64,000 bases of DNA. Source: Paraburkholderia caballeronis. GTDB lineage: Bacteria > Pseudomonadota > Gammaproteobacteria > Burkholderiales > Burkholderiaceae. The notes below the pieces were generated by a model. It ran no database searches. It was not told where the DNA came from and worked only from the letters and a program-made list of their open reading frames with translations. A program made the translations under genes and the position numbers. The stretch spans positions 1,024,779 to 1,088,778 of the forward strand of contig NZ_FNSR01000003.1 in the NCBI RefSeq assembly GCF_900104845.1, written 5' to 3'. Shown piece after piece: positions 3,613 through 32,610 of this stretch (its first letter is position 1; each line of letters opens with the position of its first letter).

Positions 3613-3634
3613 GCAATTTTTCCTGGGTATCTTT

Positions 3635-8817: not shown

Positions 8818-8893
8818 GGTGCCACCTGCCACGACGTCGCGGACGTCACATACATCGTGAAAATATTTTGCTTTCTTGAAATTGACATTGTCT

Positions 8894-12151: not shown

Positions 12152-12152
12152 A

Positions 12153-14240: not shown

Positions 14241-16737
14241 GGCTTGCTCCCAAAACTTCAATCCGAAGATTTTCGATATCGGCGCGGTTAAACAGCGTGC
14301 TTGTGCCGTTAGCGTCAGTGAGCCCTTCCGTCGTTGAGCCGTCGGGCATGTGAAGACGGAAGCGCTGACCGGAGAGCGGTGTCTCCTGATCGCCTTCCGG
14401 GTGCAGGAAGAATTTACGTGCGAACGAGCTCTGCTGAAAACTGGGCATTGCGCTCGAAACACTCGCAGCACCAGCCTTCGAAATTGAAGGTGTTTTGACT
14501 GTCAAATTACTTGTCCCGCCGACCTCCGGCACACTACCAGCTACCTTGTAGTAGGCGCCACCGCCGCTCGACATCAAAACCTGATCCTGACCCGCGAGAA
14601 TGACTCGTTTCCCCTTGATGATGACGTCACCACTAGCAGTCATCTCAATGGGGCCGTCTTGCGCCTGAATCTGAACTTTGCCCTTGATGGCAAACAGTAA
14701 AACGCCAAGCTTGTGCGCAATAATCGACACGACCTCACCGGCACCGACGATGAACTTCTTTGCGATGCTAAATTCGGCGTTGCCTCCGGCCGTCGACGTG
14801 AGATGGCGGCCGCTGGAGAACTGGATGTCCTCCGGTGTTGCGCCAACGATCCCGTGCGGGGCGGACAGCATGATGATTGACTGTTTCAGTTCTTTATAGG
14901 CGCTTTCGAGTCGTGTCTGCTGAGACTTGACGTCTACGAGTTCGGCCTGTGCCGCTTGGGCAATCGCGCGCAGTGTAGTCGCATCATCGAGTGCCGCCTG
15001 CAGTTGCTTGACGGCTTCCCAGGTATCCAGTTGCTGTCCGTTCGCCCGCGTCTGCTCGTCGCCCGAAATCAGTACGCCTTTGCCACCGCGCACGGCTACA
15101 TGCTCATCACTGCGCAACTCAGCTCCGCTACCCCGCTTCTCGCGGCTAGCGTTGACCATGTTCCCGAGAGTCAACTGACTCTTGCCACCGCCCTCGGTTG
15201 CAATCTTGATATGCTCTTCCCCTTCAAAGTCTTCCATCTGAAGGGTATTATTCGACTGCGTGTGAATAACGTTGCGCGTCATCCAGCGATCGTCGCTTGT
15301 GATCACATCCGGATTCACGCTGTCGTGCATCACATGAGCGATATACGGAAAATCTGGATTGCCGTTCTCGAAACCGACTTCGACGCCCGAGCCGTCTAGT
15401 GCCGGGAAATGAGTTCCGGTGGTCTTGGGCCCAGCAAAGGACTTTGCGATGCGCATCCAGCAACTCGTCAACCCGCCCGTACGCTGTTCGCGGTCGAAGT
15501 CGAACGAGACCATATAGTGGCCGTCCTTGTTGACGTAGCTATATTTGTATCGGTTCGGAGATGTGATACGTCCGCTGATGGTGCCGTGGATTTTGGGCCA
15601 CGTCTCCTCGAGCAGGGGCATACGGTAGATCAGGTGTGACGGGATCGCCGTATAAGTGTTGTGGTAGGCCTTGTCGCGCGATCCAACGTGTTCAACGCGC
15701 GTGATCAGCTGACCGTACTCGGCCTCAGGCAGCGTCCGGTTGGTGAAGCGGAAAACGCGGCCGGGCGCGACACACAAAACGTTACCTTCGCCCGTATAAA
15801 CGATTTTTTCGCACAGCAGCGCTTCGTGCCGCAACTGGGCTTCCCATTCAGCCTGATCGTCGCTCAGGTGTCCCGCTGCCCAGACATCTGGTGTACCCCA
15901 CGTGGTCTTGTCGTCCGGCGCGGCGTTGGCTTCCCCATCAATGGGCCGCGGCGCCTTACGGTGGTTGTAGTGGCGTACGGTGACCGCCTGGGCGATCGTC
16001 TTTGTGCGGGTCTCGAACTTCTCGACCGACTCGGCACCGGTGCTTTCGAGACCCGAGGCCGGCCTGAAGGGCGCGACGAATGTGTCGCTGCGCTCGTAGT
16101 GCGTGAAGTCATCGCCGAAGTGTGTCACTTCGCCGTATTCGCCCTGGCGAATCGCAAACCAGATACCGGAGCGTCGCGCGAGACGGGTAAAAAACTCGAG
16201 GTCAGTCTCGTTCCACTGCATCACGAAGTCGCGCTTTGGGTACTCACGACGAAGCGTGAATTCAAAGTCACTCGTGCCGGCGCCGAACCCCTGCTCGCGG
16301 AATATCTGCTCGATGATCTCGGGATCAGTCTGCCCCAGGAAGATGCGGCAGCGTTTGACGTTTCTCAGCAACGCGATACGCGATTCGAGTACGGCCTCGT
16401 AGGTCGTCTCGTCCTTGCTGCTGGAAAGCTGGTTAAACTCTGTAATGACACCCTGAAACTGCCGGCCGGGGCCCGCTGGCAACGTCACGCCAGCGAGGGT
16501 AGGCGGCAGGATTGAAAAGACCGCCGTCTTCGTCAGGATATCGTCTACAGGCAGATCAGCGACCCGGTGGGTCACCTTCATCCTGAAACGCGTGGGCGCA
16601 CCCGCCTCCTCGACACCGGTAAAATCGACGACATCGAAACCCGGCGCGGACTTGCTGCCGGTGACATCAAGATGATAGGCCTGCAGGCCACCCCTCTTGA
16701 GGGATCCAATTGCTTCGTTGACACCCACCTTCGACAC
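14233..16737 (-). CDS. vgrG: T6SS spike protein VgrG with C-terminal cargo-binding extension
   Basis: VgrG trimers cap the Hcp tube and carry effectors. The 834-aa product has the gp27/gp5-like N-terminal region, the OB-fold region and a long beta-helix with a DUF2345-like segment (VIIKGKRVILAGQD). About 65 residues at the C-terminus (from FARKFFLHPEG) form a separate beta-rich domain with TTEGLTDANGTST, resembling the transthyretin-like domains that dock Tle lipases; that assignment is inference. The start codon is GTG behind GGGAG. The stop overlaps the tle3 start, which supports VgrG-Tle3 pairing. An inverted repeat separates it from tssC. Confidence 0.92.
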   Translation of the reverse strand: MSKVGVNEAIGSLKRGGLQAYHLDVTGSKSAPGFDVVDFTGVEEAGAPTRFRMKVTHRVADLPVDDILTKTAVFSILPPTLAGVTLPAGPGRQFQGVITEFNQLSSSKDETTYEAVLESRIALLRNVKRCRIFLGQTDPEIIEQIFREQGFGAGTSDFEFTLRREYPKRDFVMQWNETDLEFFTRLARRSGIWFAIRQGEYGEVTHFGDDFTHYERSDTFVAPFRPASGLESTGAESVEKFETRTKTIAQAVTVRHYNHRKAPRPIDGEANAAPDDKTTWGTPDVWAAGHLSDDQAEWEAQLRHEALLCEKIVYTGEGNVLCVAPGRVFRFTNRTLPEAEYGQLITRVEHVGSRDKAYHNTYTAIPSHLIYRMPLLEETWPKIHGTISGRITSPNRYKYSYVNKDGHYMVSFDFDREQRTGGLTSCWMRIAKSFAGPKTTGTHFPALDGSGVEVGFENGNPDFPYIAHVMHDSVNPDVITSDDRWMTRNVIHTQSNNTLQMEDFEGEEHIKIATEGGGKSQLTLGNMVNASREKRGSGAELRSDEHVAVRGGKGVLISGDEQTRANGQQLDTWEAVKQLQAALDDATTLRAIAQAAQAELVDVKSQQTRLESAYKELKQSIIMLSAPHGIVGATPEDIQFSSGRHLTSTAGGNAEFSIAKKFIVGAGEVVSIIAHKLGVLLFAIKGKVQIQAQDGPIEMTASGDVIIKGKRVILAGQDQVLMSSGGGAYYKVAGSVPEVGGTSNLTVKTPSISKAGAASVSSAMPSFQQSSFARKFFLHPEGDQETPLSGQRFRLHMPDGSTTEGLTDANGTSTLFNRADIENLRIEVLGASHG

Positions 16738-16847: not shown

Positions 16848-18398
16848 TCAGTTCTTGGCTTTGGGCATCTGCGACACCAGCGACAGGCCGATGTCCATAC
16901 CCTCGATCTGGAAGTGCGGGATGATGAAGAGCTTGACGCGGAAGAAGCCCGGGTTGTCCTCAATATCCTCGACCGAGACCCTGGCCTCGCGCAGCGGGTG
17001 CGAAGCCTGAAGCTCGTCACCGGGGTCCTTCATCTCGGTCACGAGCCCCTTGATCCAGTTGTTCAGCTCTAGCTCCAGCACACGCCGGTCCTTGGTCGTG
17101 CCGATGTTCTCGCGCTGGATCAGCTTCAGGTAATGCGCGATCCGCGACAGCAGGAAGATGTACGGCAAACGCGCGTTGATGCGGCTGTTGGCCGTCGCCT
17201 CCCTGGTCTCGTACAGTGCCGGCTTCTGCGCCGAGTTGGCCGAGAAGAAACACGCGTAGTCGTGGTTCTTGTAAAACGACAGCGGGATGAAACCGAGGTT
17301 GGCAAACTCAAATTCGCGCGTCTCCGGAATCAGCACTTCAGTCGGGATCTTCGGCTGAACACCAGTGCCAAGGTCGTAAAGATGAACCGGCAGGTCTTCG
17401 ACCTTCCCGCCCGCCTGGGGGCCTCGCACCTGGACACACCAGCCGCTATCCATGAAGCTGCGCGCCATGTTCGCCGAGAAGGCGAACGAAGCGTTGACCC
17501 ACAGGTACTTGTCGTTGTCCGGGCCCTTGACTTTTTCCTGATAGTTGAAGCTGCGCACGGGTGTCGTGTCGGGACCGTACGGCAGACGGCCGAGCACGCG
17601 CGGCATCGTCAGACCGATGTAGCGCGCGTCATCGGTATCGCGGAAGCTCTTCCACTTGATGTATTCGGCACGGTCTAAGTAGTTGCCGATATCCTGGATC
17701 GCGGCCACTTCTTCCATCGTCTGCTTGTCGAAGAATGCGGGGCCCACCGAACCGATGAACGGCATATGAGCTGCGGCCGCCACCTTCGAGATGTTGCGAA
17801 GGAGCGCGATATCCTGCGGCGAGTTCGTGAACTCGTAGTCGGCGATCATCGCGCTGATGGGCTGTCCACCCGGCGTGTCGTACTCTTCGATATAGGTGTG
17901 ACGGTAGAGACCACTCTGGATAATTTCAGTGCAATCCTCGAAGTCACGCAGGAGGGCTTCCTTCGACAGGTCGAGCATTTCGACGCGTACGTTGCGCCGG
18001 AAATCGATGCGATCGATGTTGAACTTCACTCCGCGCCAGCGTGCCTCGACCGCCTGAAACTCGGGGTGATGCATGACTGCGTCGAGCTGTCGGCTGATCT
18101 GCTCGTCGAGCTGGCCGATATGGAAGTCGAGCAGCGACTTGTCCAGTCGCTCGACCGGCTTGTCGCCCTTGCCTACCAGTTCGAGGAATGCGCTCATGCC
18201 GCGCGCAATACGCTCGCTTGCCGACGATTCGGAAAGCAGGTCGATGTTCAGGAATGCCTCAAGCGGTCGCGCTTCGCGTACCGGCGCGAGATTGATCTTT
18301 TCGCACAGCGCCTGATAGACGCTGTTGCTGTCGGCTTCGGGAGCGTGCAGCACGACGCTTTCGCCTGCGCCCGTCTGCTGGGATTCGTTGTGTTCCAT
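16848..18398 (-). CDS. tssC: T6SS sheath large subunit TssC, T6SS-1
   Basis: TssC forms the contractile sheath with TssB. The 516-aa product shows the full family pattern: RPLEAFLNIDLLSE, LLDFHIGQLDEQISRQLD, DEYDTPGGQP-type loop, AAHMPFIGSVGPAFF and LGRLPYGPDT, ending PHFQIEGMDIGLSLVSQMPKA in two blocks. The ATG at 18398 follows AGGA; a longer reading to 18476 would enter tssB and is rejected. It lies 70 bp after tssB. The T6SS-2 paralogue at 26606-28138 is very similar throughout. Confidence 0.96.
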   Translation of the reverse strand: MEHNESQQTGAGESVVLHAPEADSNSVYQALCEKINLAPVREARPLEAFLNIDLLSESSASERIARGMSAFLELVGKGDKPVERLDKSLLDFHIGQLDEQISRQLDAVMHHPEFQAVEARWRGVKFNIDRIDFRRNVRVEMLDLSKEALLRDFEDCTEIIQSGLYRHTYIEEYDTPGGQPISAMIADYEFTNSPQDIALLRNISKVAAAAHMPFIGSVGPAFFDKQTMEEVAAIQDIGNYLDRAEYIKWKSFRDTDDARYIGLTMPRVLGRLPYGPDTTPVRSFNYQEKVKGPDNDKYLWVNASFAFSANMARSFMDSGWCVQVRGPQAGGKVEDLPVHLYDLGTGVQPKIPTEVLIPETREFEFANLGFIPLSFYKNHDYACFFSANSAQKPALYETREATANSRINARLPYIFLLSRIAHYLKLIQRENIGTTKDRRVLELELNNWIKGLVTEMKDPGDELQASHPLREARVSVEDIEDNPGFFRVKLFIIPHFQIEGMDIGLSLVSQMPKAKN

Positions 18399-18468
18399 GT
18401 GATGTCCTGTCGACCGCTTTGCGGCCAGCGAGATTCGTGATGCGGTGAAAGCCTGTTTAGCCTTTGTC

Positions 18469-18984
18469 TCAGGCATGACCTTCGGGGCGCATTCCCGCCG
18501 TCGCGATCTGCGACAGTTCTTCGCGCAGTTGCGCCGTCAACGCCGAATCCTTCTGGATCTTCTCGAATTCACGGCGGAAGGTACCGTTGTCGAGCAGATT
18601 GGATTTGAGGTCGCGCAACAGATTACGCATCGCAAGCATGGCTTGCGGTTGTGGGATTTGACGTGCAACCTGTTCGGGCTCAAAATCCTTCATCGAACGG
18701 AAGCTCAGATTGACCGGCAACTCGGTACCATCGTCGGCCAGCGTTTTTTCCGCCGCGATCTTCAGTTCGGGATTGAAGTCAGCCAGGGCGCTGTCAAAAT
18801 TATTCTTGTTGATCGAGACTTTCTTGCGTTCGGCGAGCGAGCCCGTCGCCTTGCCGGCACTGAAGTCCCCTCCCACAAGCAATTTCAGTGGCAGCTTGGT
18901 CCTCTTCTGCGCACCGCCTGTGTGCAGGTCGGCAGAAATATTAATTCTGCTTGACGGAATTTCTTTCTGGAAACTGTCAGCCAT
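18469..18984 (-). CDS. tssB: T6SS sheath small subunit TssB, T6SS-1
   Basis: TssB pairs with TssC in the sheath. The 171-aa product starts MADSFQKEIPSSR and contains the conserved ELPVNLSFRSMKDFEPEQVA block and LLRDLKSNLLDN. The ATG at 18984 has GGGAAAAGG upstream; an alternative ATG four codons earlier lacks a ribosome site. It is the first gene of the leftward T6SS-1 operon, divergent from tssK across an AT-rich region. Confidence 0.95.
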   Translation of the reverse strand: MADSFQKEIPSSRINISADLHTGGAQKRTKLPLKLLVGGDFSAGKATGSLAERKKVSINKNNFDSALADFNPELKIAAEKTLADDGTELPVNLSFRSMKDFEPEQVARQIPQPQAMLAMRNLLRDLKSNLLDNGTFRREFEKIQKDSALTAQLREELSQIATAGMRPEGHA

Positions 18985-19543: not shown

Positions 19544-20905
19544 ATGCGGACATTCAAACCTCTCTGGCAAGAGGGCGCTGTACTCTCGCCGCATCACTTC
19601 CAGCAACAGGGCCTGTGGTGGCAATTTGCCCAGCAACAATTCGTCCCGCTCGCGGTCGCCGAGCCGTGGGGCGTACTGGACGTCCGTGTGGACGAGGAGC
19701 TGCTGCTCAACGGACGCGTAAAGCTCGCTGGGCTAAAGTTGCGCTTCGGAGATGGCACGCCCATCGACACGTCCATTGCAGATGTACTTCCACCGGCACG
19801 TGACCTCGCACGCGATGTTGGGTCGGACGTTCAGAGCGTGATTGTGTACGCTGGGCTCCCCCTGTTCGATGCAGTCGGCAACAACTGTCGCGTGGACGGA
19901 GAAACGGTTTCGCGCCCGCGACGCTACTTCCGTGAGTTCGTCGAGGTCCCGGATCTGCTCGGCACGATAGACGCAGAACTTGCTGTCGAGCGCCATGCGC
20001 TCCAGTTGCTGTTCGATTTCGAATCTCACGCGGACTACATCGTTTGCCCGATTGCGCGCCTTGTGCGTGGACAGCGCAGCGTATTCGAGTTGGACCACAA
20101 CTGGGTGCCCCCGTGCCTTGCGCTCTCCGGTCATCCCCGGCACGAGGAACGGGTCTCCCGCATTGCCGACATTCTCCAGGCGAAAAGCATTGCGCTCGCT
20201 GCACGCCGCAGCGAGCGCATTGACGATGTCGCGGAATTCGGTGTTGCGGACGTCTCGCTCTTCTGGCTCCTTCACTGCCTGAACACGCACTGGCCAGAAC
20301 TGCGCTTTCTCGCAAGCCACCCGTACCAGCCGCCCGAGCGGCTCTACCATGTACTCGCGCAACTCACTGGTGCGCTGATGACTTTCTCGACGCGAGTCAA
20401 CCTCGCCGAGATTCCGGCATACGACCATGAACGTCAGGACGAGGTTTTCTCGAAACTGGAAGATCTCATCCGCGACCTGCTCAACGCCGTCATTCCGTCG
20501 CGTGTCGTGCCGATCGGACTGCTGAAGAAAGGTCCGACGTACTGGAATGGCCAGATTCACGACGATCGTCTGCTCGAGGGCGCGGACTGGTACCTGTCGG
20601 TCAGCGCGGCGAAGCCCGCGTTCGAACTGGTGGAACTGATTCCGCGCCTTTGCAAGATTGGCGCGCCGGACGATATTGCCCATATCGTCAATTCCGCACT
20701 TCCTGCCGTGCCGCTTCGCGCAGTGCAGCGGGTACCTGCGGCTATCCCTGTACGGCTTGAGAACCAGTATTTCGCGCTCGATTCGAAGGATCCCCTGTTT
20801 GCGGGCATGCTCGCCGCGCGCACCTGCCAGATCTACCTGCCAGCAAGCGTTCCCGAAGCATCGCTTGAGCTCTATGCCGTGCTGACATCGCAGGGAGACA
20901 AATGA
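19544..20905 (+). CDS. tssK: T6SS baseplate subunit TssK, T6SS-1
   Basis: TssK connects the baseplate to the membrane complex. The 453-aa product opens with the diagnostic LWQEGAVLSPHHFQQQ and has WLLHCLNTHWPELRFL and HPERLYHVLAQL-like motifs (here HPYQPPERLYHVLAQL). The length matches the family. It is the first gene of the rightward operon, and its stop region overlaps the tssL start by 4 bp. It is the only tssK in the window. Confidence 0.95.
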   Translation: MRTFKPLWQEGAVLSPHHFQQQGLWWQFAQQQFVPLAVAEPWGVLDVRVDEELLLNGRVKLAGLKLRFGDGTPIDTSIADVLPPARDLARDVGSDVQSVIVYAGLPLFDAVGNNCRVDGETVSRPRRYFREFVEVPDLLGTIDAELAVERHALQLLFDFESHADYIVCPIARLVRGQRSVFELDHNWVPPCLALSGHPRHEERVSRIADILQAKSIALAARRSERIDDVAEFGVADVSLFWLLHCLNTHWPELRFLASHPYQPPERLYHVLAQLTGALMTFSTRVNLAEIPAYDHERQDEVFSKLEDLIRDLLNAVIPSRVVPIGLLKKGPTYWNGQIHDDRLLEGADWYLSVSAAKPAFELVELIPRLCKIGAPDDIAHIVNSALPAVPLRAVQRVPAAIPVRLENQYFALDSKDPLFAGMLAARTCQIYLPASVPEASLELYAVLTSQGDK

Positions 20906-21567
20906 CAATCAACGGCCCGCTCCCGCTTTCCGCCCTGCTCCGCAATACGGCGCTCGAGATCTCGCAGTTCGCACAGGGCACCACGACAGACGATGTCGAG
21001 GATCTGCGCGCGCAGTGCCGCAAGCTGACCGAAGACTTTGCATCCGCGATGGAGGCGCGCAAGGTACCGGTTAATGTTGCGCGCGATGCACTCTACATGC
21101 AATGCGGCCTGCTCGATGAATCGGTTCTTGCCCATCTCCCGGCTCAGAGCCGCCCTCTCTGGGAAGCCACGCCGTTGCAGGTCGAGCGGTACGGCGAGCA
21201 CGACGCCGGTGAACAGGTGTACAGCCGCCTCGCTGAGCGCATGCGTGAAGCACGGCCCAACGTGGAGCTGCTCGAGTGTTATGCGACGGTGCTTGGTCTT
21301 GGCTTCCAGGGAAAGTTTGCCCGCGAAGGTGCCTCCCAGCGTGCAGCGATCATCCGGTCGCTCAACGAGCGTCTGGAGAAACTGTCTCCGTCGTCTGATT
21401 CGGGGCTCGTCGTTGACGCAACACGTACGCATCGCTTCGACTGGTTCTACCGGCTCTCCCCGTGGGCGATCGCCGGGCTCGTGTGTGCCGCTGGCGCCAT
21501 CGTCTTCGTACTGATCGGGCAAGGCCTGGATCTGCAGGTCTCCCATCTGCTGTCGGCGAAAACCTGA
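20902..21567 (+). CDS. tssL: T6SS inner-membrane protein TssL (DotU type), T6SS-1
   Basis: TssL is the cytoplasmic hook of the T6SS membrane complex. The 221-aa product has the DotU cytoplasmic domain (DALYMQCGLLDESVLAHLP, VELLECYATVLGLGFQGKF) and a single C-terminal membrane segment near residues 190-212. It has no OmpA/peptidoglycan-binding extension; in the paralogous cluster that function is carried by the next gene. It overlaps tssK by 4 bp and the next ORF as TGATG. Confidence 0.94.
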   Translation: MTINGPLPLSALLRNTALEISQFAQGTTTDDVEDLRAQCRKLTEDFASAMEARKVPVNVARDALYMQCGLLDESVLAHLPAQSRPLWEATPLQVERYGEHDAGEQVYSRLAERMREARPNVELLECYATVLGLGFQGKFAREGASQRAAIIRSLNERLEKLSPSSDSGLVVDATRTHRFDWFYRLSPWAIAGLVCAAGAIVFVLIGQGLDLQVSHLLSAKT

Positions 21568-23750
21568 TGTTTACGGGTTTCGACGCCTCATGGCAGATCT
21601 TTCACGGCGGCTATCCCCATCGGAGAGTGGTGGGGATAACCACCGTACTGGTCATCGCGTTTGCACTCGCGTGGTGGGTTGCGGCCGGATCGCTTCTTCT
21701 GGGGGCGGCATTCGTGCTGTTCCGGACATGGCGTCTTCATGAGCGTCAAGACGAGCAGCAGGCAGTCATGGCTGCACTGGGGGCTACGACGGCTGACCTT
21801 CCAGCAAGCATGCGTACGCGCATGGCTGAAGACACCGTGCCGAACGTCATCCGCGACGTGCGCATCCTCACCCTCGACATGGGCCTGCTGCAGGCAGGCG
21901 CCGGCGTCAAGGGCGAGTTCGAACAGCGACTGAAAAACGTGATCGACGAAGTGCAGGCATCCAGTGTGCCGATCCTGCTATTCATTGACGAAGCCCACAC
22001 CCTGATTGGTGCGGGCAATTCGGCGGGGGACGCCGACGCCGCGAACCTGCTCAAGCCAGTGCTTGCGCGCGGCGAGCTGCGCACCATTGCCGCGACGACC
22101 TGGTCCAAGTGCAAGGAATATTTCGAGCGCGACGCCGCGCTCGAGCGTCGCTTCCAGATGATCAAGGTGGACGAGCCGGAGGACGACGCAGCCTGTCTGA
22201 TGCTCCGTGGCCTGAAAGACCGCTATGCGAAGTACCACGACGTGCACATCCGCGATGAGGCGCTGGTGGCCGCGGTCAAGCTCTCGCGCCGGTACATCCC
22301 CGCGCGCCAGCTTCCGGACAAGGCCGTCAACCTGGTCGACACGGCGGCAGCACGCGTGCGCATGGGACTCGAATCGCCGCCGGCGGAAGTGCAGCGCGCG
22401 AAAGCTGCGGTCTCAGCCATCGAACTCGAACTCACCACGGTTGAAGACGATGCGCGTGCTGGCCTCGGCGATATACAAAAGCGCCGGGCCGTGCTCGCTA
22501 CCGCACTCGCCGAAGCGCAAACCCGGATGGAGACGCTGCAACAGCGATACGGCCAGGAACTCGCCTTGGTGCAGTCACTGCTCCTGCAACGTGAAGCTGC
22601 GACTATGGTCGCGGCGGCCGATGCCGTAACACTGGCAGGGACACGTGAAGCACTCGCGCTTGCGCAGGGTAAGGCGCCCCTGATCTTCGCAAATGTGGAC
22701 GCACAGGCGATCGCACGCGTGGTGGCCGAATGGACCGGCGTGCCTGTGGGCAATCTTCTCGAAGACGAGCTGAATGGACTGCTCACACTGGAAGCCGAAC
22801 TCGCGAAGCGCGTCGTCGCGCAGGACGATGCCCTCGCTACGCTCGCGGAAAGCCTGCGCACCGCGAAGGCAGGCCTGAAGAACGAACAGGCGCCGCTCGG
22901 CGTCTTTCTGCTCGCGGGCCCATCCGGCGTTGGCAAGACCGAGACTGCGCTCGCGCTGGCCGACCTGCTCTTCGGCGGCGAGGCGGCGTTAACCACGATC
23001 AACATGTCGGAGTATCAGGAATCGCACACGGTGTCGCAGCTCAAGGGATCGCCCCCGGGCTACGTCGGTTACGGCCGCGGTGGCATCCCGACCGAGGCCG
23101 TGCGTCAGCGCCCATACAGCGTTGTGCTGCTCGATGAGGTCGAAAAGGCTCACCGCGACGTGCTCGACATCTTCTACCAGGTGTTCGACCGCGGCACGAT
23201 GCGCGACGGTGAAGGACGTAAGATCAACTTCCGCAATTGCGTGATCCTGATGACGTCCAACCTCGGCAGTGCGATGATCGACGAGGTCACAACCGGCAGC
23301 CCGGATGTCGCACAGGCAGCGCTTCTCAAGGCCATCCATCCGCAACTGCTCGCCCATTTCCAGCCGGCCCTGCTCGCGCGCTTTCAGACACTGGCGTACC
23401 GGCCGCTCGACGCGGCGGCTCTCGCCAGCATCGTGCGTCTGAAGCTGGCGAAGGTCGCTGAACGCCTGCGCCGGCAGCATGACGTCGAACTGGTCTGTGA
23501 CGATTCACTGGTCGCCGCAATGGCCGAGCGCTGCCTCACGCGGGAATCGGGTATGCGTAACGTCGATGCGTTCCTCAACCAGCGCATCCTGCCAGCAGTC
23601 TCGCGCGAACTGCTGACGCGCATGGCCAGCGGTAAGGCACCGGCGAAGATCAGCCTGTCCAGCTCGGCCGAAGGCGGTCTGACGATTGACTTCTTCGACC
23701 ACGACACGCCGGCTGCCGCGCAAGCGGTGTCTGAATCGTCGTTCGCCTGA
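21567..23750 (+). pseudogene. OmpA/TssM-like N-terminus fused to truncated ClpV (deletion product)
   Basis: An in-frame 727-aa ORF joins two unrelated parts. Residues 1-86 carry two membrane segments and end LGATTADLPASMRTRM, matching LGAATADIPLRLRTRM near residue 104 of the OmpA-type protein at 30079. From residue 87 (AEDTVPNVIRDV) it matches ClpV from just after its first Walker A motif. The AAA1 Walker B (IDEAH, 141-144) and the AAA2 Walker A (GPSGVGKT, 451-458) remain, but the ClpV N-domain and first Walker A are lost. The conserved TTWSEYKEY stretch reads TTWSKCKEY, suggesting relaxed selection. It could be a membrane-tethered remnant or simply non-functional. The start overlaps the tssL stop. 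Confidence 0.88.
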
Positions 23751-23765
23751 GAGGAGACCAGCACC

Positions 23766-24197: not shown

Positions 24198-24294
24198 CGA
24201 ATCTGGTTTGACCATATCGAAAAGATAGTGGTGAGAGATGGCGCCGCTTGTTCGGACAGGATCCCGAGATTTTTAAGTGGGACGTCCGGGGCGA

Positions 24295-24894
24295 TCATGC
24301 TGCCGATTTGATCGCTGGCAGCGTCGCGAAGTGTGCCTCATCGGGCGTCTGATCCGCCAGGCTCGAATGAGGACGTTTGCGGTTGTACAGATCAATGTAT
24401 TGGCCAATGGAACGCCGGGCGTGGTTGACCGACTCGTAGGCTCTCAAATAAATCTCTTCGTACTTGATGCTGCGCCACACGCGTTCGACGAACACGTTGT
24501 CGCGCCAGGCCCCTTTGCCGTCCATCGACAGCCGAATGCCTCGGCCCAGCACCACCTCGGTGAAGGCTCCCGCCGTGAACTGGCTGCCCTGATCGGTGTT
24601 CACGATGCCGGGGTTCCCATAGCGGGCGAACGCTTCTTCCAGCGCTTCAACCGCATGCACGGCCTCCAGCGTGATCGCCACGCGGTGCGCGAGGATCGTG
24701 CGGCTGGTCCAGTCCACCACCGCCGTCAGATACACGAATCCGCGCGCCATCGGGATATAGCTCGTATCCAGTGCCCAGACCTGGTTTGCCCGATTGATCG
24801 TCATGCCGCGCAGCAGATACGGCCAGATCTTGTGCTGCGCATTGCATCGGCTCGTGTTCGGCTTACAGTACCGGGTGATCGCGCGCTCGGCGTA
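24295..24894 (-). pseudogene. IS3-family transposase fragment (5'-truncated)
   Basis: The frame is open from 24894 to the stop at 24295 and encodes the catalytic part of an IS3-family OrfB. It has the first Asp in WALDTSYIP, the second in NTDQGSQF and the Glu in FVERVWRSIKYEE, then the C-terminal YNRKRPHSSL motif. OrfA and the OrfB N-terminus are absent; the frame meets a TAA at 24895-24897, and tssA-2 ends 32 bp beyond. The stretch 24198-24294 shows no gene and may hold the element's terminal repeat, though I could not pair it. The fragment marks the boundary between the two T6SS clusters. Confidence 0.88.
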
Positions 24895-24928: not shown

Positions 24929-26509
24929 TCACGGCAAACCGAGCGCCCGCGCCGGATCCAGCACCGCGAGTTCGGCCTGCAACTCGCCCATGCGGCGCAC
25001 AAGCGCGGGCTTGTCCGCATCCTTGCGGCTGCTCGCCGCCTTCAGCGCGCGCACCAGTTGCAGCTTCACCTCGAACACCAGCGCCGGATCCCAGCGCACG
25101 AGCGGCAGCGTTCTCGCGGCCGCATCCAGTTCGAGCAACAGCGCCGTCGCGGTATCCGCACGCCCGGAAAGGTCGGCGAGACGCGCCATCACGAAACGTT
25201 GCAGATAACGATGCCGCTCCGTCTTCAGGCCCGGCAGCGCATCGAGCCACGCGAACGCCGCCTCGATGCCCTCCCGCGCGGCCATCTCCCTCGCCTGCGC
25301 CTCGATTTCCGGCCAGTCGCCCGTACCTCCTTCTTCGCCGTCGGCCGACACCGGCAAAGGCGCGACCGTTTCCCCGGCTTCCAGGTCGCGCACGACCGCA
25401 TGCCGCGCAATCCATTCGAGCGTCGTATCGTCCGCGAACGGCGTGCCGTCGTTGAACGACAGTCGTTCGATACCGGGCAGGCGCTCCAGGAAAAGCGCAA
25501 AGTCCGCGCGCAGCAGTTCGCGCCATGCGTTATACGGCGCGCCCACGTGATCGAGCGCGACGTGCTGGAAATACTGCAGGTCGAACCACAGGTGATTGAC
25601 GCCTTCCATGAACGCCCCCTCGGCGCGTTCGAGCAGTTCGTTCCACTGCTTCTGCAACACGAGACGTTTTAGCTGCTGACGCAGTTCCGGCCGCGGCGCG
25701 ACAAGACGCGTATGCGACGCGGCGTTGGCCGGCGGCACCTCATGCAGCGTATCCCAGCGAATGCAGCGCACGAGCCGCACCGACGGCAGGTACCCCTGCT
25801 CCTGATCGCGCAGCCACGCAGCCATCGCTCGCGCCTGCTCAAGCAGATCGCGCGTCGAGGCGATCGTGCCCGCCGGCGTCCCTGCTGTCACGGGAGAAAA
25901 TGACGCCTGCGGGATGTCGGCGGCGGCGTCAGCGGAGTCCCCTTTGCGCTCGAAGCGGGAAATGAGCGGCTGCAGATTCGGGCGCGCGGCTTCCGGCCAG
26001 GCGGCGGTCTGCGAGACGATCACGTCGAGCGCCGCGAGCGCGCGTTCGAGTTCGGACGAAACGAGCCCGCCGCGACTGTCGAACAACTCCATCATGCGCG
26101 GCGTGGCCAGCATTTCGAGCGCGCCCTTCTTCGCTTCCGCGCGCGCCGGCAGCACCGCATCCGCAAAACGCTCAAGCAGCGCCGCGGTCAGTTCCAGCCC
26201 GTCGGCGAACCCGGACGGACCGTCCTGCCGCAACCGCGCGCCGGCGTAGTAGCCGGCCAGACGCAGATCCTTGCCGGTCTCTTTTATCAACTGCTCGCAT
26301 GCGAGCAGGATCAGCGGTTCATCGATGCCGGAAAGTTTCCCCGCCTCGTCCTTCAACTGGAAAAACGCGTCTTCATAACCGGGATCGCGCCCGACCCCGG
26401 TGTCGCCCGGCAGCGGCTGCACCCAGGCGCTCCAGGTATCAAGCCGCGAGCGCGTGAGCTGTTCTGCATCACGCGAAGGAAACAGAGCCTTGAGCAGCCC
26501 GGACAGCAT
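24929..26509 (-). CDS. tssA: T6SS protein TssA (VasJ C-terminal type), T6SS-2
   Basis: This is a paralogue of the T6SS-1 TssA with the same layout: ImpA-type N-terminus (DPGYEDAFFQLKDEAGKL, GKDLRLAGYYAGARLRQDG), a central linker and a VasJ-like C-terminus (RHRYLQRFVMARL, ending DPARALGLP). The 526-aa length is normal, so the gene looks intact even though the IS fragment begins 34 bp after its stop. It lies downstream of tssC-2 beyond a terminator-like hairpin. No other T6SS-2 gene follows it before the IS. Confidence 0.93.
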   Translation of the reverse strand: MLSGLLKALFPSRDAEQLTRSRLDTWSAWVQPLPGDTGVGRDPGYEDAFFQLKDEAGKLSGIDEPLILLACEQLIKETGKDLRLAGYYAGARLRQDGPSGFADGLELTAALLERFADAVLPARAEAKKGALEMLATPRMMELFDSRGGLVSSELERALAALDVIVSQTAAWPEAARPNLQPLISRFERKGDSADAAADIPQASFSPVTAGTPAGTIASTRDLLEQARAMAAWLRDQEQGYLPSVRLVRCIRWDTLHEVPPANAASHTRLVAPRPELRQQLKRLVLQKQWNELLERAEGAFMEGVNHLWFDLQYFQHVALDHVGAPYNAWRELLRADFALFLERLPGIERLSFNDGTPFADDTTLEWIARHAVVRDLEAGETVAPLPVSADGEEGGTGDWPEIEAQAREMAAREGIEAAFAWLDALPGLKTERHRYLQRFVMARLADLSGRADTATALLLELDAAARTLPLVRWDPALVFEVKLQLVRALKAASSRKDADKPALVRRMGELQAELAVLDPARALGLP

Positions 26510-26605: not shown

Positions 26606-28138
26606 TCAGCTCTTGGCCTTCGGCATCTGCGACACGAGCGACAGCCCGATGTCCATCCCCTCGACCTGGAAGTGCGGAATGATGAAGAGCTTGATGCGGA
26701 AGAAACCGGGGTTGTCCTCGATGTCCTCGACCGTCACCTTCGCCTCGCGCAACGGGTGCGACGCCTGCAATTCGTCGCCCGGATCCTTCATCTCGGTCAC
26801 CAGACCCTTGATCCAGTTGTTGAGTTCCAGTTCGAGCAGGCGGCGGTCCTTGGTGGTGCCGATGTTTTCGCGCTGGATCAGCTTCAGGTAATGCGCGATG
26901 CGCGACAGCAGGAAGATGTACGGCAGGCGCGCGTTGATGCGGCTGTTCGCCGTCGCTTCCTTCGTTTCGTACAGCGAGGGCTTCTGCGTCGAGTTGGCCG
27001 AGAAGAAGCACGCGAAGTCGTGATTCTTGTAGAACGACAGCGGAATGAAGCCCAGATTCGCGAACTCGAACTCGCGCGTCTCGGGAATCAGCACTTCGGT
27101 CGGGATCTTGGCCTGCGCACCGGTACCGAGGTCATACAGGTGAACCGGCAGGTCCTCGACCTTGCCGCCGGCCTGCGGACCGCGAATCTGCACGCACCAG
27201 CCGTTGTTCACGAAGCTGCGGCTCATGTTGGCCGCGAACGCAAACGACGCGTTGACCCACAGGTACTTGTCGTGGTCCGGGCCTTTCACCGCTTCCTCGT
27301 AACCGAAGGCGCGCACCGGCACCGTGTCCTTGCCGTACGGCAGACGACCCAGCACGCGCGGCATCGTCAGGCCCACATAACGGGCGTCGTCGGTGTCGCG
27401 GAAGCTCTTCCACTTGATGTACTCGGCGCGATCGAAGTAGTTGCCGATATCCTGGATCGCGGCCACTTCCTCCATCGACGTCTTGCCGAAGAACGCCGCG
27501 CCCACCGAACCGATGAACGGCATGTGCGCCGCGGCCGCGACCTTCGAGATATTGCGCAGCAGCGCGATATCGATCGGCGAGTTCTCGAATTCGAAATCGC
27601 TGATCAGCGCGCTGATCGGCTGGCCGCCCGGCGTGTCGTATTCCTCGACGTACGTGAGGCGATACAGCCCGCTCTGGATCACTTCCGGCGTGTCCTCGAA
27701 GTCCCGCTGCAGCGCGTCCTTCGACACGTCGAGCACTTCGATCCGCGCGTTGCGGCGGAAGTCGGTGCGCGAAACCAGCATCTTCAGACCGCGCCAGCGC
27801 CCTTCGAGCGCCTGGAATTCCGGCGAGTGCATCACCGCATCGAGCTGGCGGCTGATCTGCCGGTCGATCTGGCCGATATGGAAGTCCAGCAGCGACTTGT
27901 CCAGCCGCTCGACCGGCTGGCTCGACTTCGCGACGAGATCGAGAAACGCGCTCATGCCGCGCGCGATCCGCTCGTCGGCGGACGCTTCGGAAAGCGTGTC
28001 GTTGTCACGGAAGGCTTCGAGCGGCCGCGCCTCGGTGACGGGTTTCAGGTTGATCTTGCTGCACAGCGATTCGTACACGCTGCCCTGTTCGAGCACGACG
28101 GTTTGTGTCGCGCCCTGTTGCGATTCATTCTGTTTCAT
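26606..28138 (-). CDS. tssC: T6SS sheath large subunit TssC, T6SS-2
   Basis: The 510-aa sheath protein is nearly colinear with TssC-1. It contains LLDFHIGQIDRQISRQLD, AAHMPFIGSVGAAFFGK, LGRLPYGKDT and the same C-terminal MDIGLSLVSQMPKAKS. The ATG at 28138 follows AGGACA, as in T6SS-1. The gene lies 72 bp after tssB-2. High similarity of both sheath subunits suggests a shared ancestry of the clusters and possible cross-assembly. Confidence 0.96.
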   Translation of the reverse strand: MKQNESQQGATQTVVLEQGSVYESLCSKINLKPVTEARPLEAFRDNDTLSEASADERIARGMSAFLDLVAKSSQPVERLDKSLLDFHIGQIDRQISRQLDAVMHSPEFQALEGRWRGLKMLVSRTDFRRNARIEVLDVSKDALQRDFEDTPEVIQSGLYRLTYVEEYDTPGGQPISALISDFEFENSPIDIALLRNISKVAAAAHMPFIGSVGAAFFGKTSMEEVAAIQDIGNYFDRAEYIKWKSFRDTDDARYVGLTMPRVLGRLPYGKDTVPVRAFGYEEAVKGPDHDKYLWVNASFAFAANMSRSFVNNGWCVQIRGPQAGGKVEDLPVHLYDLGTGAQAKIPTEVLIPETREFEFANLGFIPLSFYKNHDFACFFSANSTQKPSLYETKEATANSRINARLPYIFLLSRIAHYLKLIQRENIGTTKDRRLLELELNNWIKGLVTEMKDPGDELQASHPLREAKVTVEDIEDNPGFFRIKLFIIPHFQVEGMDIGLSLVSQMPKAKS

Positions 28139-28210
28139 TGACTGTCCTGTGCTGGTCTCTAACGCCACCTGACTGCGAAATGCGGTGAAAATCCGGGCGG
28201 CCTTTGGCGC

Positions 28211-28723
28211 TTAAGCGTGGCCTTCGGGCTGCGTGGCCGCGGTCGCCACCTGCGCGAGTTCGCTGCGCAGCTTTTCGGAAAGCCCCTTGTCCTTCAGGAC
28301 TTTTTCGAGTTCGCGACGGAACGTGGCGTTATCGAGCAGGTTCGACTTCAGGTCGCGCAGCAGATTGCGCATCGCGAGCAGCGCACGCAGTTCCGGAACC
28401 TGGCGGGCGACCTGCTCCGGCTCGAAGTCCTTCATCGAACGGAACGACAGGTTGACCGGCAGTTCCGAGCCGTCGCCGACCAGCGTGTTTTCCGCCGCGT
28501 ACTTCAGGTCCGGCGCATGGTCGGCGAGCACGGAGTCGAAGTTGTTCTTGTCGATATTGACTTTCTTGCGTTCGGCCAGCGGCGACTGCTCGCGGCCCGC
28601 GCTGAAGTCTCCCGCCACCAGCAACTTGAGCGGCAGTTCCATCTTTTTCTGCGCGCCGCCCGTATGCAGGTCGAGTGTTATCGAGACCCGGCTTTTAGGA
28701 ATTTCCCGCTGGAAGCTGTCCAT
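28211..28723 (-). CDS. tssB: T6SS sheath small subunit TssB, T6SS-2
   Basis: The 170-aa product starts MDSFQREIPKSR and carries the family block ELPVNLSFRSMKDFEPEQVA and LLRDLKSNLLDNATFRREL. An AAGGA ribosome site precedes the ATG. It heads the leftward T6SS-2 operon, mirroring T6SS-1. Confidence 0.95.
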   Translation of the reverse strand: MDSFQREIPKSRVSITLDLHTGGAQKKMELPLKLLVAGDFSAGREQSPLAERKKVNIDKNNFDSVLADHAPDLKYAAENTLVGDGSELPVNLSFRSMKDFEPEQVARQVPELRALLAMRNLLRDLKSNLLDNATFRRELEKVLKDKGLSEKLRSELAQVATAATQPEGHA

Positions 28724-29350: not shown

Positions 29351-30082
29351 ATGATGAGATTGCCCCTGGGCCGCAACCGGCGTACCCCTGTCACCCCCGC
29401 ATCGGACATCGCGGCCTCGCGAGAAGCGGGGATGCGTGATCTGCTGCGCGATACCGCGCTGCTGGTGACGTCGCTCGCGAGCGGCGGCGCCGTGCCGGAC
29501 GCCACTTCGTTTCGCCAGCGCTGCCGGCAGATCACGGGGCTGTTGGCCGAAGCCCTGGAGCGCCTCGGTTATCCCGAAGACGTGCGGCGCGAGGCGCTGG
29601 TCGCCCAATGCGGCGTGCTCGACGAGATGGCGTTGCGCTATCTGCCCGCCGCAGCCCGAATCGACTGGGAGCAACGGCCGATGCAGGTCGAACGCTTTTC
29701 GATCCATGACGCCGGCCGGCGCGTCATCGACTGCATCGAGACGCATCTGCAAAAAGCCTCGCCCGACGTCGATCTGCTCGAATGCTACGCGGCGATTCTC
29801 GGCATGGGATTCGTGGGCCGCTACGCCCGCGACGGGCAGGCAAAGCGCGCCGCGTTGATCGCGACGCTCAATGCCCGGTTGCAGGAGCTTCGCGCGCCGA
29901 CGGACGAACCTTTCCTGACCGATCCGGCGGGGACGCAGCTTGCCACCGGCTTTTACCGGTCGGCGCCGTGGATCATCGGCGCGCTCGCGTGCATCGCGGC
30001 CATGGCCGTATGGATTGCCGCGAACCGAACCCTCGATACGCAGTTCGCGCACATGACGCCTGCCAAGGTCGGACAGCCATGA
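29351..30082 (+). CDS. tssL: T6SS inner-membrane protein TssL (DotU type), T6SS-2
   Basis: The 243-aa product has a DotU domain (EALVAQCGVLDEMALRYLP, VDLLECYAAILGMGFVGRY) and one C-terminal membrane segment near 210-230. The N-terminus is about 25 residues longer than in TssL-1, and overall similarity to TssL-1 is only moderate, lower than for the sheath genes. It has no OmpA extension. The stop overlaps the next start as ATGA. Confidence 0.93.
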   Translation: MMRLPLGRNRRTPVTPASDIAASREAGMRDLLRDTALLVTSLASGGAVPDATSFRQRCRQITGLLAEALERLGYPEDVRREALVAQCGVLDEMALRYLPAAARIDWEQRPMQVERFSIHDAGRRVIDCIETHLQKASPDVDLLECYAAILGMGFVGRYARDGQAKRAALIATLNARLQELRAPTDEPFLTDPAGTQLATGFYRSAPWIIGALACIAAMAVWIAANRTLDTQFAHMTPAKVGQP

Positions 30083-31890
30083 AGTCCGATCTGCCCGAAC
30101 TCGCCGCGCGTTCCACCCCGTCACAGGCAACCGGCCATGCGGGCCTCGGTTATCCGCTGCGCCTGATGATCGCGTTGGCGATCGCGCTGGCGATCGCCGT
30201 GATCTGGCTGGTGGCCAAACCCGGCTCCGGTATCGCGTCGGCGATCACGGCTGCCGTCGTCATCGTGGGCCTCGCGCCGATACTCTGGCGCACCCGGCTG
30301 CTGGCCAGCGCGCGCAGCGACAACGATCACGTGCTGGCCGCACTGGGCGCGGCAACCGCCGACATTCCGCTGCGCCTGCGCACCCGTATGCCGCTCGTGC
30401 TGGTCACGGGCGACGACCTGCCCGCGCTGTTCGACCGGCACGACGGCAAGCGGTTTGCGCACGTCGGCGACGGCGCTGTCTGGCTGCGCGTCGACCGGCC
30501 TCAGGATCTGCCCGGCATGGCGGTCGCCGTCAGACAGTGGCGTGATGGGCGCGCGCCAGACGGTGTCGTGCTGTCCGTCGCGCCCGCCCGTTATCCGGAC
30601 GCGGATCTGCTCACGCAGTCACTGCGCGTGGTGCGGCAGGCGGCGGCGGACGCCGCGCGCAGGCTCGGCTCGCGCCCGCTGCCTGGCTACGTCGCGGTCT
30701 ATCAACGGCTCTCGGCTGCAAGTGTTCCCGGCGTTTCAACCGAACTGCGGCTGGAAACAGCATCGGCCGATCTGCTCACCCCGCAGTGGTACGGCGTCTC
30801 GTCCGCTGCGGGCAGCGTGGACCCGCAGCGTTTCGAAACCGTGATACGCGCAGCCGAAAACGACGCGTGGAACGACACGCAAACCGGTGTGCCGGCCACC
30901 CGGGCGGCGGCGCTCGCGTCGGTCATCGGCTGGACGCAGCGGACGGTCATTCACGCGCTCACCGATTCGCGGCAACCCGCGACGCCGTGGCTGCTCCACG
31001 GCGTGGGCTGGATCGACTGCGGACCGGCCTGCGGGCCGGGCCATCCGTGGGAGCGCGACGTGCAGATGCGAACCGAGGTAGCTCGCGCGCACGGCGCCGC
31101 GTCGCCGCTGCCGTGGCCCCTTCCGCAGCCGCTGATCCGCACGATGCCCCGGCGGTTCTGGATGTCGCCGCGCGTCGTCGCCGTCGCTCACGCGCTCGCG
31201 TTGCTCGCGTGCGCCGCCGCCGTCGCGTTCTTCTTTTCGATGCGGCACAACCAGGCGCTGCTTGCGCGCATCGATGCGGATCTCGGCCGTTATTCGATGA
31301 TCCCGGCCGACCACGATGCCGCGAAACGCGATGCGCTGAAAGCGCTGGTGGCCGACCGGAACGAGCTACAGCGCTACGCCCGCTCGGGCGTTCCGTTGCC
31401 GCTGTCGTTCGGCATGTATCGCGGCGACCGGATGATCCCGCCGCTGAACAGCGCGATCGCGTCGTACCAGCCGCCGCCTCCGCCGCCGGAGATCGTGACG
31501 CTCGACAGCATGTCGCTCTTCGACAGCGGCAAGGCGCAGCTCAAGGACGGCTCGACCCGGGTGATGGTCAACGCGCTCGAAATGATCCGGGTGAATCCGG
31601 GCAAACGCGTGCTCGTCGCCGGTCATACGGACAACGTGGGCAATCCGGACCGCAATCTGAAGCTGTCGGCGGCGCGCGCCGAAGCCGTGCGCGACTGGCT
31701 AGTCGACGCGTCGGGCATGTCGTCCACGCAGTTCGCGATCCAGGGTTACGGCGATACGCGCCCGATTGCGGACAACGACAGCGAAGCCGGCCGGGCGAAA
31801 AACAGGCGCGTGGAAATCACGCTGGTGCCGGATGCGCAGCAGGCTCTCCCGCCGGGCGCCGCGCCGGCGGAAAAAGACCCCACGCGCTGA
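30079..31890 (+). CDS. TssM-like/OmpA chimeric T6SS protein (peptidoglycan binding)
   Basis: The 603-aa protein has two membrane segments near residues 28-72, a cytoplasmic region resembling the degenerate NTPase-like domain of TssM (LVLVTGDDLPALF, APDGVVLSVAP), a third membrane segment near 366-388, a short TssM-like periplasmic piece, and a C-terminal OmpA domain from about 474 (FDSGKAQLKDGS, VAGHTDNVGN, KNRRVEITL). OmpA domains bind peptidoglycan and anchor T6SS membrane complexes. The start overlaps the tssL-2 stop. A matching N-terminus survives in the T6SS-1 fusion at 21567. The alternative reading is an extended TagL-like anchor protein. Confidence 0.85.
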   Translation: MKSDLPELAARSTPSQATGHAGLGYPLRLMIALAIALAIAVIWLVAKPGSGIASAITAAVVIVGLAPILWRTRLLASARSDNDHVLAALGAATADIPLRLRTRMPLVLVTGDDLPALFDRHDGKRFAHVGDGAVWLRVDRPQDLPGMAVAVRQWRDGRAPDGVVLSVAPARYPDADLLTQSLRVVRQAAADAARRLGSRPLPGYVAVYQRLSAASVPGVSTELRLETASADLLTPQWYGVSSAAGSVDPQRFETVIRAAENDAWNDTQTGVPATRAAALASVIGWTQRTVIHALTDSRQPATPWLLHGVGWIDCGPACGPGHPWERDVQMRTEVARAHGAASPLPWPLPQPLIRTMPRRFWMSPRVVAVAHALALLACAAAVAFFFSMRHNQALLARIDADLGRYSMIPADHDAAKRDALKALVADRNELQRYARSGVPLPLSFGMYRGDRMIPPLNSAIASYQPPPPPPEIVTLDSMSLFDSGKAQLKDGSTRVMVNALEMIRVNPGKRVLVAGHTDNVGNPDRNLKLSAARAEAVRDWLVDASGMSSTQFAIQGYGDTRPIADNDSEAGRAKNRRVEITLVPDAQQALPPGAAPAEKDPTR

Positions 31891-31903
31891 TCGCTTTTTT
31901 TGG

Positions 31904-31953
31904 TCCCGAAGTCATCGCTTCGGGAATGGGTAGCCCGGTAGCTGATGCCGGGC
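31904..31953. repeat. Two consecutive stem-loops upstream of hcp
   Basis: TCCCGAAG/CTTCGGGA (31904-31911 and 31918-31925, 6-nt loop) is followed by GCCCGG/CCGGGC (31933-31938 and 31948-31953, 9-nt loop). Both lie between the OmpA-type gene and the hcp ribosome site. They may be processing or stabilising structures for hcp mRNA, or a leaky terminator of the upstream transcript. Confidence 0.6.
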
Positions 31954-31982
31954 GATTGTCGCAGTAGAAATGGAGTGAAGAA

Positions 31983-32468: not shown

Positions 32469-32485
32469 TCGGCGCCACGATGTCC

Positions 32486-32580: not shown

Positions 32581-32610
32581 GCTTCATTCCTGCGTGCCAG
32601 CAGCCAGAAC

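What the first reader, a model, noticed from the sequence alone, without database searches (positions are those of the whole stretch)
21567..23750. A ~3 kb deletion fused an OmpA/TssM-like gene to clpV and removed hcp from T6SS-1
The ORF joins the first 86 residues of an OmpA-type T6SS protein to ClpV just past its first Walker A motif. Comparison with T6SS-2 (about 30390 to 33430) shows what is missing: most of the OmpA-type gene, hcp, the ClpV N-domain and the first P-loop. The junction near 21816-21832 (CGCGCATGGC) sits where the two parents share short CGC(A/G)TG-like microhomology. The fused frame stayed open, so a membrane-tethered half-ClpV might be made.
Basis: partly seen in the sequence, partly recalled or inferred. 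Interest (0 to 1): 0.82.

Follow-up and report, generated by a model that had tools for sequence, protein, structure and literature searches.

The report
Deletion scar in a merged T6SS
A soil bacterium lost about 3 kb from one of two neighbouring toxin-injection gene clusters, leaving a fused, probably dead gene, and the two incomplete clusters now look like two halves of a single machine.

Summary
Observation confirmed. The 727-aa ORF at 21567-23750 joins aa 1-86 of a TagL/OmpA-type protein to ClpV just past its first Walker A. In three intact relatives about 3.0 kb lies between the break points (rest of tagL, hcp, ClpV N-domain, D1 P-loop). A second fusion, P0002 (716/727 identical, another source), makes misassembly unlikely.
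The fusion looks like a pseudogene: it departs at 7 of 219 ClpV sites invariant in 111 intact homologues (median 0), lacks 9 aa between its two TM helices, and scores under the TssH cut-off.
Similar losses, with different break points, occur in related Paraburkholderia/Burkholderia clusters. The neighbouring "T6SS-2" is incomplete: no tssK, E, F, G, M or vgrG was found in it. Within this T6SS family the genome holds one tssK, E, F and M (cluster 1) and one tagL, hcp and complete clpV (module 2). Amino-acid change is raised in cassette-lost clusters for tssB1, for tssC1 (mainly one strain) and in the fusion, not in tssK, F, L, M, E or vgrG.
Best reading: a deletion scar inside a chimeric T6SS formed by reciprocal loss. 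Against it: 12 of 63 tssK genomes have no family ClpV. Function untested.

The parts
21567..23750 (+). fused tagL'-'clpV1 ORF (727 aa), deletion scar
   Evidence: TIGR03345 874 bits, below cut-off 884.95
21567..21824 (+). remaining N-part of tagL/OmpA-type gene (86 aa; 9 aa shorter than in four relatives)
21819..21830 (+). deletion junction (CGCATGGC); about 3.0 kb missing
21825..23750 (+). clpV1 remnant: D1 without P-loop, complete D2
20902..21567 (+). tssL1 (DotU)
19544..20905 (+). tssK1
   Evidence: only family tssK in the genome
23766..24197 (+). tssE1; only family tssE in the genome
18469..18996 (-). tssB1 (raised amino-acid change)
16848..18476 (-). tssC1
14233..16737 (-). vgrG1
5230..8937 (-). 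tssM1; only family tssM (next best 40%)
3635..5233 (-). tssA1
1834..3612 (-). tssF1
755..1870 (-). tssG1
24232..24871 (.). IS3-family fragment between cluster 1 and module 2
   Evidence: 86% to a stretch annotated IS3 family transposase
24929..26509 (-). tssA2 (module 2)
26606..28168 (-). tssC2 (module 2)
28211..28723 (-). tssB2 (module 2)
29351..30082 (+). tssL2 (module 2); no tssK found between tssB2 and tssL2
30079..31890 (+). tagL2 / OmpA-type gene (module 2)
31983..32468 (+). hcp2 (module 2)
32611..35343 (+). clpV2 (module 2), only complete family ClpV in the genome

Best explanation
(a) The fused ORF is the scar of a deletion of about 3.0 kb that removed most of tagL, all of hcp and the first part of clpV (N-domain and D1 P-loop) from cluster 1; it is a pseudogene whose frame happens to be open (by comparison with relatives; about 0.9). 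(b) The loss was tolerated because the adjoining module 2 carries close copies of exactly these parts. Module 2 in turn lacks tssK, tssE, tssF, tssG, tssM and vgrG, so the two now act as one chimeric T6SS: baseplate and membrane complex (TssE/F/G/K/M, VgrG) from cluster 1; tube, sheath recycling and peptidoglycan anchor (Hcp2, ClpV2, TagL2) and increasingly the sheath (TssB2/C2) from module 2 (inferred from gene content and relative change; about 0.5; no expression or secretion data).
For: Orthologous clusters that keep the cassette in P. adhaesiva, P. sp. Tr-20389, P. antibiotica, P. solisilvae. Second fusion P0002. 7 of 219 invariant ClpV sites broken in the fusion, 10 in P0002; median 0, maximum 7 (one sequence) among 111 intact homologues. 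Unique aa/synonymous differences, cassette-lost versus intact cluster-1 relatives (tested): tssB1 20/11 vs 9/25 (p 0.003), tssC1 65/65 vs 12/53 (p 2e-5; 19/36, p 0.06 without P. bannensis), clpV part 29/32 vs 63/159 (p 0.006); not raised in tssK1 (13/32 vs 48/38, lower, p 0.005), tssF1 (22/86 vs 35/66, lower, p 0.03), tssL1, tssM1, vgrG1, tssE1. In the window alone, tssB+tssC+clpV 46/48 against K, L, F, G, M, VgrG, E 37/76 (p 0.02). One family copy each in the own genome: tssK, tssE (next 29%), tssM (next 40%), tssF (next 43%), tagL (next 36%), hcp of this type (two others at 61%), complete clpV. Six other genomes carry the same module 2 beside a module in which no tssB, tagL, hcp or clpV was found (38 for two of them in longer stretches). 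7 of 7 genomes with two family tssK have exactly one family ClpV match (counted in 65). N-terminal ends of TssC1 and TssC2 nearly identical, ClpV2 N-domain 72-73% to three intact cluster-1 ClpVs.
Against: 12 of 63 genomes with a family tssK have no family ClpV match, 11 of these 12 with a full-length Hcp of this type, e.g. P. polaris, so ClpV loss is tolerated without a sibling copy. P. sp. CNPSo 3272 keeps cluster-1 tssG/F/A/M/K/L but has only a truncated Hcp of this type: retention need not mean function. At looser definitions of invariance one or two intact ClpVs break as many sites or more: at 99%, fusion 9 of 299, maximum of the others 10 (two sequences); at 97%, fusion 13 of 364, others up to 21 and 15. 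Pairwise dN/dS of the clpV part to intact orthologues is still only 0.10-0.11, against 0.07 between intact ones, so relaxation, if real, is recent. P0001/P0002 differ less in the ClpV part (6/641) than in the N-part (4/86; p 0.02), which hints that some constraint may remain, and the one-codon indel between them and the 9-aa deletion are both in frame. The unique-difference counts use four to seven sequences per gene, ignore recombination and treat sites as independent. tssG1 (35/38 vs 26/40) and tssA1 (43/49 vs 41/71) lean slightly towards relaxation (not significant). No TssJ was seen among the ORFs scanned.
Confidence: 0.6

Rival explanations
1. Plain decay: cluster 1 is dying after the deletion, module 2 is itself a remnant, and neither works; the retained genes are simply recent leftovers.
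For: Other lineages show broader decay: in CNPSo 3272 cluster 1 has no tssC and only a scrap of tssB, its tssE and clpV lie on another contig beside a truncated hcp; in P. bannensis no tssA1 or tssB1 was found and the tssC1 start is altered; genome G060 keeps only a tssL tail.
Against: In the window tssG, F, A, M, vgrG, C, B, K, L, E are all open and tssK/F/E/VgrG show no rise in amino-acid change; tssE1 has 0 aa / 7 synonymous unique differences. Module 2 without tssK occurs in six other genomes, so it is not fresh debris.
Confidence: 0.3
2. The fusion is a working protein: a membrane-tethered, P-loop-less ClpV that joins ClpV2 hexamers or holds ClpV2 at the membrane.
For: Frame open in two copies (P0001, P0002); D2 domain complete; fewer changes in the ClpV part than in the N-part between them; both small indels in frame.
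Against: Sites invariant in 111 ClpVs are broken in both copies, three more in P0002 alone; the TM hairpin loop is deleted; N-domain and D1 P-loop absent; other lineages lost the segment without leaving a fusion.
Confidence: 0.06
3. The ORF has no function as a protein but its frame is kept open as a translated bridge, because tssE1 (the only family tssE) lies 15 bp downstream and would suffer polarity if the scar gained an early stop.
For: tssE1 is single in the genome and has no unique amino-acid change; gap 23750-23766; in-frame indels.
Against: P. bannensis and Burkholderia sp. L27 have a direct tssL-tssE junction instead; an open frame is compatible with chance.
Confidence: 0.2
4. Misassembly between the two related clusters.
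For: Two related gene sets lie side by side.
Against: The clpV part is 81% aa identical to clpV2, so it is not a copy of it; the N-part matches cluster-1 orthologues better than module 2; P0002 is a distinct fusion from another source.
Confidence: 0.02

Closest known systems
Burkholderia T6SS-7 (also T6SS-a), TagL-dependent, related to EAEC Sci-1 (PMC6612558: section 3.2 and passages read; PMC3885511: passages read)
   Same: TagL/OmpA-type gene in the cluster; P. tuberum STM678 (L093) has the same gene order tssB-C | tssK-L-tagL-hcp-clpV-tssE, clpV 76% to clpV2
   Different: The T6SS-7 clusters of that paper carry all core subunits; here the contents are split over two incomplete neighbours
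EAEC ClpV1/ClpV2 (PMC5048182: passages read, abstract among them)
   Same: Two T6SS gene sets in one cell; the ClpV N-domain reads the TssC N-terminal helix
   Different: EAEC ClpVs are not interchangeable (the paper gives 20% identity for the N-terminal regions, residues 1-163); here the ClpV N-domains are 72-73% identical and the TssC N-termini nearly the same, so sharing is plausible
Campylobacter jejuni T6SS without ClpV (PMC3667781: passages read)
   Same: Cluster lacking its own clpV, reported functional
   Different: There no ClpV was found elsewhere; here clpV2 lies 9 kb away
Deletion-born fusion pseudogenes in bacteria (recalled, general)
   Same: Two truncated genes joined in frame by one deletion
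   Different: Here in a cluster pair where the lost parts exist next door

Membership tests
TssH/ClpV (TIGR03345) | score above curated cut-off | tested here: not met
   874 against 884.95 bits
TssH/ClpV (TIGR03345) | Clp N-domain that binds TssC | tested here: not met
   match starts at profile position 228
TssH/ClpV (TIGR03345) | Walker A in both AAA domains | tested here: not met
   only the D2 P-loop is present
TagL / OmpA-type T6SS anchor | C-terminal OmpA peptidoglycan-binding domain | tested here: not met
   fusion has no PF00691; tagL2 does
Burkholderia T6SS-7 / T6SS-a (cluster 1 plus module 2) | TagL orthologue | tested here: inconclusive
   OmpA-domain gene at 30079 in the expected place; the name TagL comes from PMC6612558 and recall, orthology to EAEC TagL not tested
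Burkholderia T6SS-7 / T6SS-a (cluster 1 plus module 2) | TssH at least 70% identical to the H111 TssH | not tested
   H111 protein not fetched; P. tuberum STM678 clpV is 76% to clpV2
Burkholderia T6SS-7 / T6SS-a (cluster 1 plus module 2) | all core tss genes in one cluster | tested here: not met
   cluster 1 lacks intact tagL/hcp/clpV; module 2 lacks tssK/E/F/G/M (window searched with cluster-1 and module-2 proteins)
Pseudogene | changes at otherwise invariant sites | tested here: met
   7 of 219 against a median of 0 and a maximum of 7 in 111
Pseudogene | stops or frameshifts | tested here: not met
   open frame in P0001 and P0002

The most novel reading that the evidence does not exclude
In this T6SS family, two co-resident clusters repeatedly fuse functionally by reciprocal gene loss: one keeps baseplate, membrane complex and effectors, the other keeps sheath, tube, anchor and unfoldase. 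The window catches an early step with the scar still readable (tssB1/C1 still present but relaxing), while six other genomes show a finished form (module 1' with an N-terminally shortened TssC' and no TssB' found, beside module 2) and four more carry such a half-T6SS without a module 2 beside it, which would work in trans as a satellite.
Probability: 0.4. Interest if true: 0.72.

Novelty: new variant of a known kind. Interest (0 to 1): 0.5.

Why it matters
T6SS clusters are usually counted as one machine each and incomplete ones as dead, and in EAEC the tail parts of different clusters do not mix (PMC5048182, passages). If two incomplete neighbours make one machine, cluster counts in genomes mislead, and the question of which interfaces must stay cognate becomes testable in natural variants: TssE-TssB/C, Hcp-TssB, ClpV-TssC, TagL-TssL.

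Tried and rejected
Ordinary two-systems reading: rejected, no tssK/E/F/G/M or vgrG was found in module 2. 'Exactly one ClpV per genome' as a law: rejected, 12 of 63 tssK genomes have none, and B. ubonensis LMG 20358 has two. Microhomology as proof of mechanism: too short. Remnants of tssK2 or tssE2 in the window: none found; G014 keeps a tssE remnant after clpV2, which suggests module 2 came from a complete cluster. Plasmid collection: no record covers 80% of the locus. P0003 (Yersinia) matched only because its partial ClpV is duplicated. Structure prediction not run: it would not tell a scar from a working protein. Literature: the listings showed no title or abstract start on a T6SS split over two incomplete neighbours or on this fusion; passages were read in PMC8356804, PMC6612558 (also section 3.2), PMC5048182, PMC3885511, PMC10434147 and PMC3667781, no whole paper.

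Full report
WHAT IS THERE. The ORF 21567-23750 encodes 727 aa. Its start overlaps the stop of tssL1. Residues 1-86 are the start of an OmpA-type (TagL-like) T6SS protein and residues from 85 on are ClpV beginning just behind the first Walker A motif. Pfam finds the D1 lid, complete D2 and the D2-small domain but no Clp N-domain and no OmpA domain; the TssH model scores 874 bits, under its cut-off of 884.95. Orthologous clusters with the segment present exist in P. adhaesiva, P. sp. Tr-20389, P. antibiotica and P. solisilvae; in the three measured (all but Tr-20389) the two break points are 2,977-3,040 bp apart (coordinates). The junction shares CGC, or CGCRTG with one mismatch, between the two sides as read in relatives; 3 bp or more of identity occurs in 6.8% of random junctions.

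IS IT REAL. The ClpV part is only 81% identical to clpV2, so it is no assembly echo of module 2. A protein search found P0002, a 726-aa fusion with the same junction from another source (716/727 identical; cluster of 3 sequences on 3 contigs). Which strains those three come from is not told.

IS IT A WORKING GENE. Against 111 intact ClpVs (110 of the 120 hits listed, chosen by length 880-950, plus clpV2), the fusion departs at 7 of 219 invariant sites (G155D, E181K, Y182C, D255N, D376N, L508P, A663M), P0002 at 10; the median of the others is 0, the maximum 7 (one of 111). At 99% conservation it is 9 of 299 (others up to 10), at 97% 13 of 364 (others up to 21). The reference set was chosen by similarity to residues 1-160, so it is not a random sample. 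The N-part lacks nine residues, the loop between two hydrophobic helices, that four relatives have. Against full neutrality: between P0001 and P0002 the ClpV part changed less (6/641) than the N-part (4/86, p 0.02), both small indels are in frame, and pairwise dN/dS of the clpV part to intact orthologues is 0.10-0.11, only somewhat above the 0.07 between intact ones. The open frame itself is weak evidence (2.7% of single changes make a stop). I take it as a recent pseudogene, possibly kept open because tssE1 lies 15 bp downstream.

THE NEIGHBOURHOOD. Cluster 1: tssG, F, A, M (755-8937), an unknown 475-aa gene, Tli3, Tle3, vgrG, tssC1, tssB1 on the minus strand; tssK1, tssL1, fusion, tssE1 on the plus strand. 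Then an IS3-family fragment (24232-24871). Module 2: tssA2, tssC2, tssB2 on the minus strand; tssL2, tagL2, hcp2, clpV2 on the plus strand. A tblastn of the cluster-1 proteins over the whole window found no second tssK, tssE, tssF, tssG, tssM or vgrG. In the whole genome the family has one tssK, one tssE (next 29%), one tssM (next 40%), one tssF (next 43%), one tagL (next full-length match 36%), one complete clpV, and one hcp of this type (two more at 61%). The halves are complementary.

THE SAME LOSS ELSEWHERE. Of 28 named TssL1-like loci (mapped), the hcp-clpV part of the cassette is gone from P. sp. CNPSo 3274 (which keeps a tagL stretch with two stops in the alignment), and the whole cassette from P. 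bannensis (tssL to tssE), P. sp. CNPSo 3272 and Burkholderia sp. L27 (tssL to tssE); clpV alone is gone from P. polaris; one locus (L083) is cut by a contig end before clpV; the other 22 keep tagL, hcp and clpV. Break points differ, so several losses look independent. P. solisilvae, intact in cluster 1, has lost most of clpV in a second cluster (G085_C64). Six genomes hold module 2 next to a module 1' with tssC', tssK', tssL', tssE' in which no tssB, tagL, hcp or clpV was found (P. bannensis is one of the six); in four more genomes such a module 1' stands without module 2 in the stretch fetched (L105, L106, L108, L109), and a fifth, L107, keeps tssB and tagL but no hcp or clpV. Across 144 genomes of the genus, 63 have a family tssK (at least 53% identity; one partial second row, in G100, was dropped): 44 with one tssK and one family ClpV match, 12 with one tssK and no ClpV match, 7 with two tssK and one ClpV match, none with two of each (handles typed and counted; ClpV match means E <= 1e-240, only the six best candidates per genome were scored, and a few such matches are partial or interrupted, for instance G091 residues 189-901 and G133 with one stop; the window's fusion is not counted).

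WHAT STAYS CONSTRAINED. Counting differences unique to one sequence (existing sequences only, four to seven cluster-1 relatives per gene), amino-acid changes relative to synonymous ones are raised in cassette-lost clusters in tssB1 (20/11 vs 9/25, p 0.003), tssC1 (65/65 vs 12/53; without P. bannensis 19/36, p 0.06) and the window's clpV part (29/32 vs 63/159, p 0.006), and not in tssK1 (13/32 vs 48/38), tssF1 (22/86 vs 35/66), tssL1 (22/16 vs 25/14), tssM1 (75/115 vs 59/87), vgrG1 (30/53 vs 55/79) or tssE1 (11/15 vs 14/20); tssA1 (43/49 vs 41/71) and tssG1 (35/38 vs 26/40) are slightly up, not significantly. P. solisilvae was left out as too distant. This is what a shared tail would predict: the sheath and unfoldase copies that module 2 duplicates loosen, the parts that only cluster 1 has do not.

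COULD THE PARTS FIT. In EAEC the two ClpVs are not interchangeable because each N-domain reads its own TssC N-terminal helix; the paper gives 20% identity for the N-terminal regions, residues 1-163 (PMC5048182, passages read). Here the ClpV2 N-domain is 72-73% identical to that of three intact cluster-1 ClpVs, and the TssC1 and TssC2 N-termini read SVYQALCEKINLAPVREARPLEAF and SVYESLCSKINLKPVTEARPLEAF. Sharing is plausible; it is not shown, and that this stretch is the ClpV-binding helix is inferred from its position.

AGAINST. Twelve tssK genomes have no family ClpV match and eleven of those keep Hcp; ClpV loss needs no sibling copy. CNPSo 3272 keeps cluster-1 baseplate genes with only a truncated Hcp of this type. 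Nothing here shows expression or secretion.

KNOWN OR NEW. The family corresponds best to Burkholderia T6SS-7/T6SS-a (PMC6612558 section 3.2; PMC3885511 passages), represented here by P. tuberum STM678 (L093). T6SSs without ClpV are known (PMC3667781, passages). No listing showed a T6SS split over two incomplete neighbours. The fusion itself is ordinary; the pattern around it is the interesting part.

Noticed in passing
L105, L106, L108, L109; also L057-L062: Half-T6SS modules with tssC' lacking about its first 80-90 codons (which would hold the ClpV-binding helix), tssK', tssL', tssE' and no tssB/tagL/hcp/clpV found.
   Followed up: partly
L100:5102-9744, L110:7854-12505, L111:3749-8354; 14 genomes: Recurrent islands with an Hcp lacking about its first 60-70 residues; in the three loci read it sits beside a clpV, a tssE and a truncated tssF. 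10 of the 14 genomes have a family clpV match.
   Followed up: partly
window 11270-16737: VgrG with a Tle3-type phospholipase effector and Tli3 immunity gene in cluster 1.
   Followed up: no
window 24232-24871: IS3-family transposase fragment between cluster 1 and module 2; may mark how they came together.
   Followed up: partly
L112 (own genome C3:72-78 kb): tssM and tssF homologues (40%, 43%) standing apart, a further partial T6SS.
   Followed up: no
L081 (P. polaris, G073) and G005, G015, G016, G034, G080, G089, G097, G105, G116, G121: Genomes with family tssK and hcp but no family clpV match.
   Followed up: partly
L098/L038 (P. adhaesiva): tssM with one internal stop and tle3 with two stops in the alignment, although the hcp-clpV cassette is present.
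   Followed up: no
window 8894-10321: 475-aa gene beside tssM with no family hit in Pfam or NCBIfam; diverged homologues (22-25%) lie in some related clusters.
   Followed up: no
window 36663-37877: MFS efflux transporter of the AraJ/Cmx type, below the Cmx cut-off.
   Followed up: no
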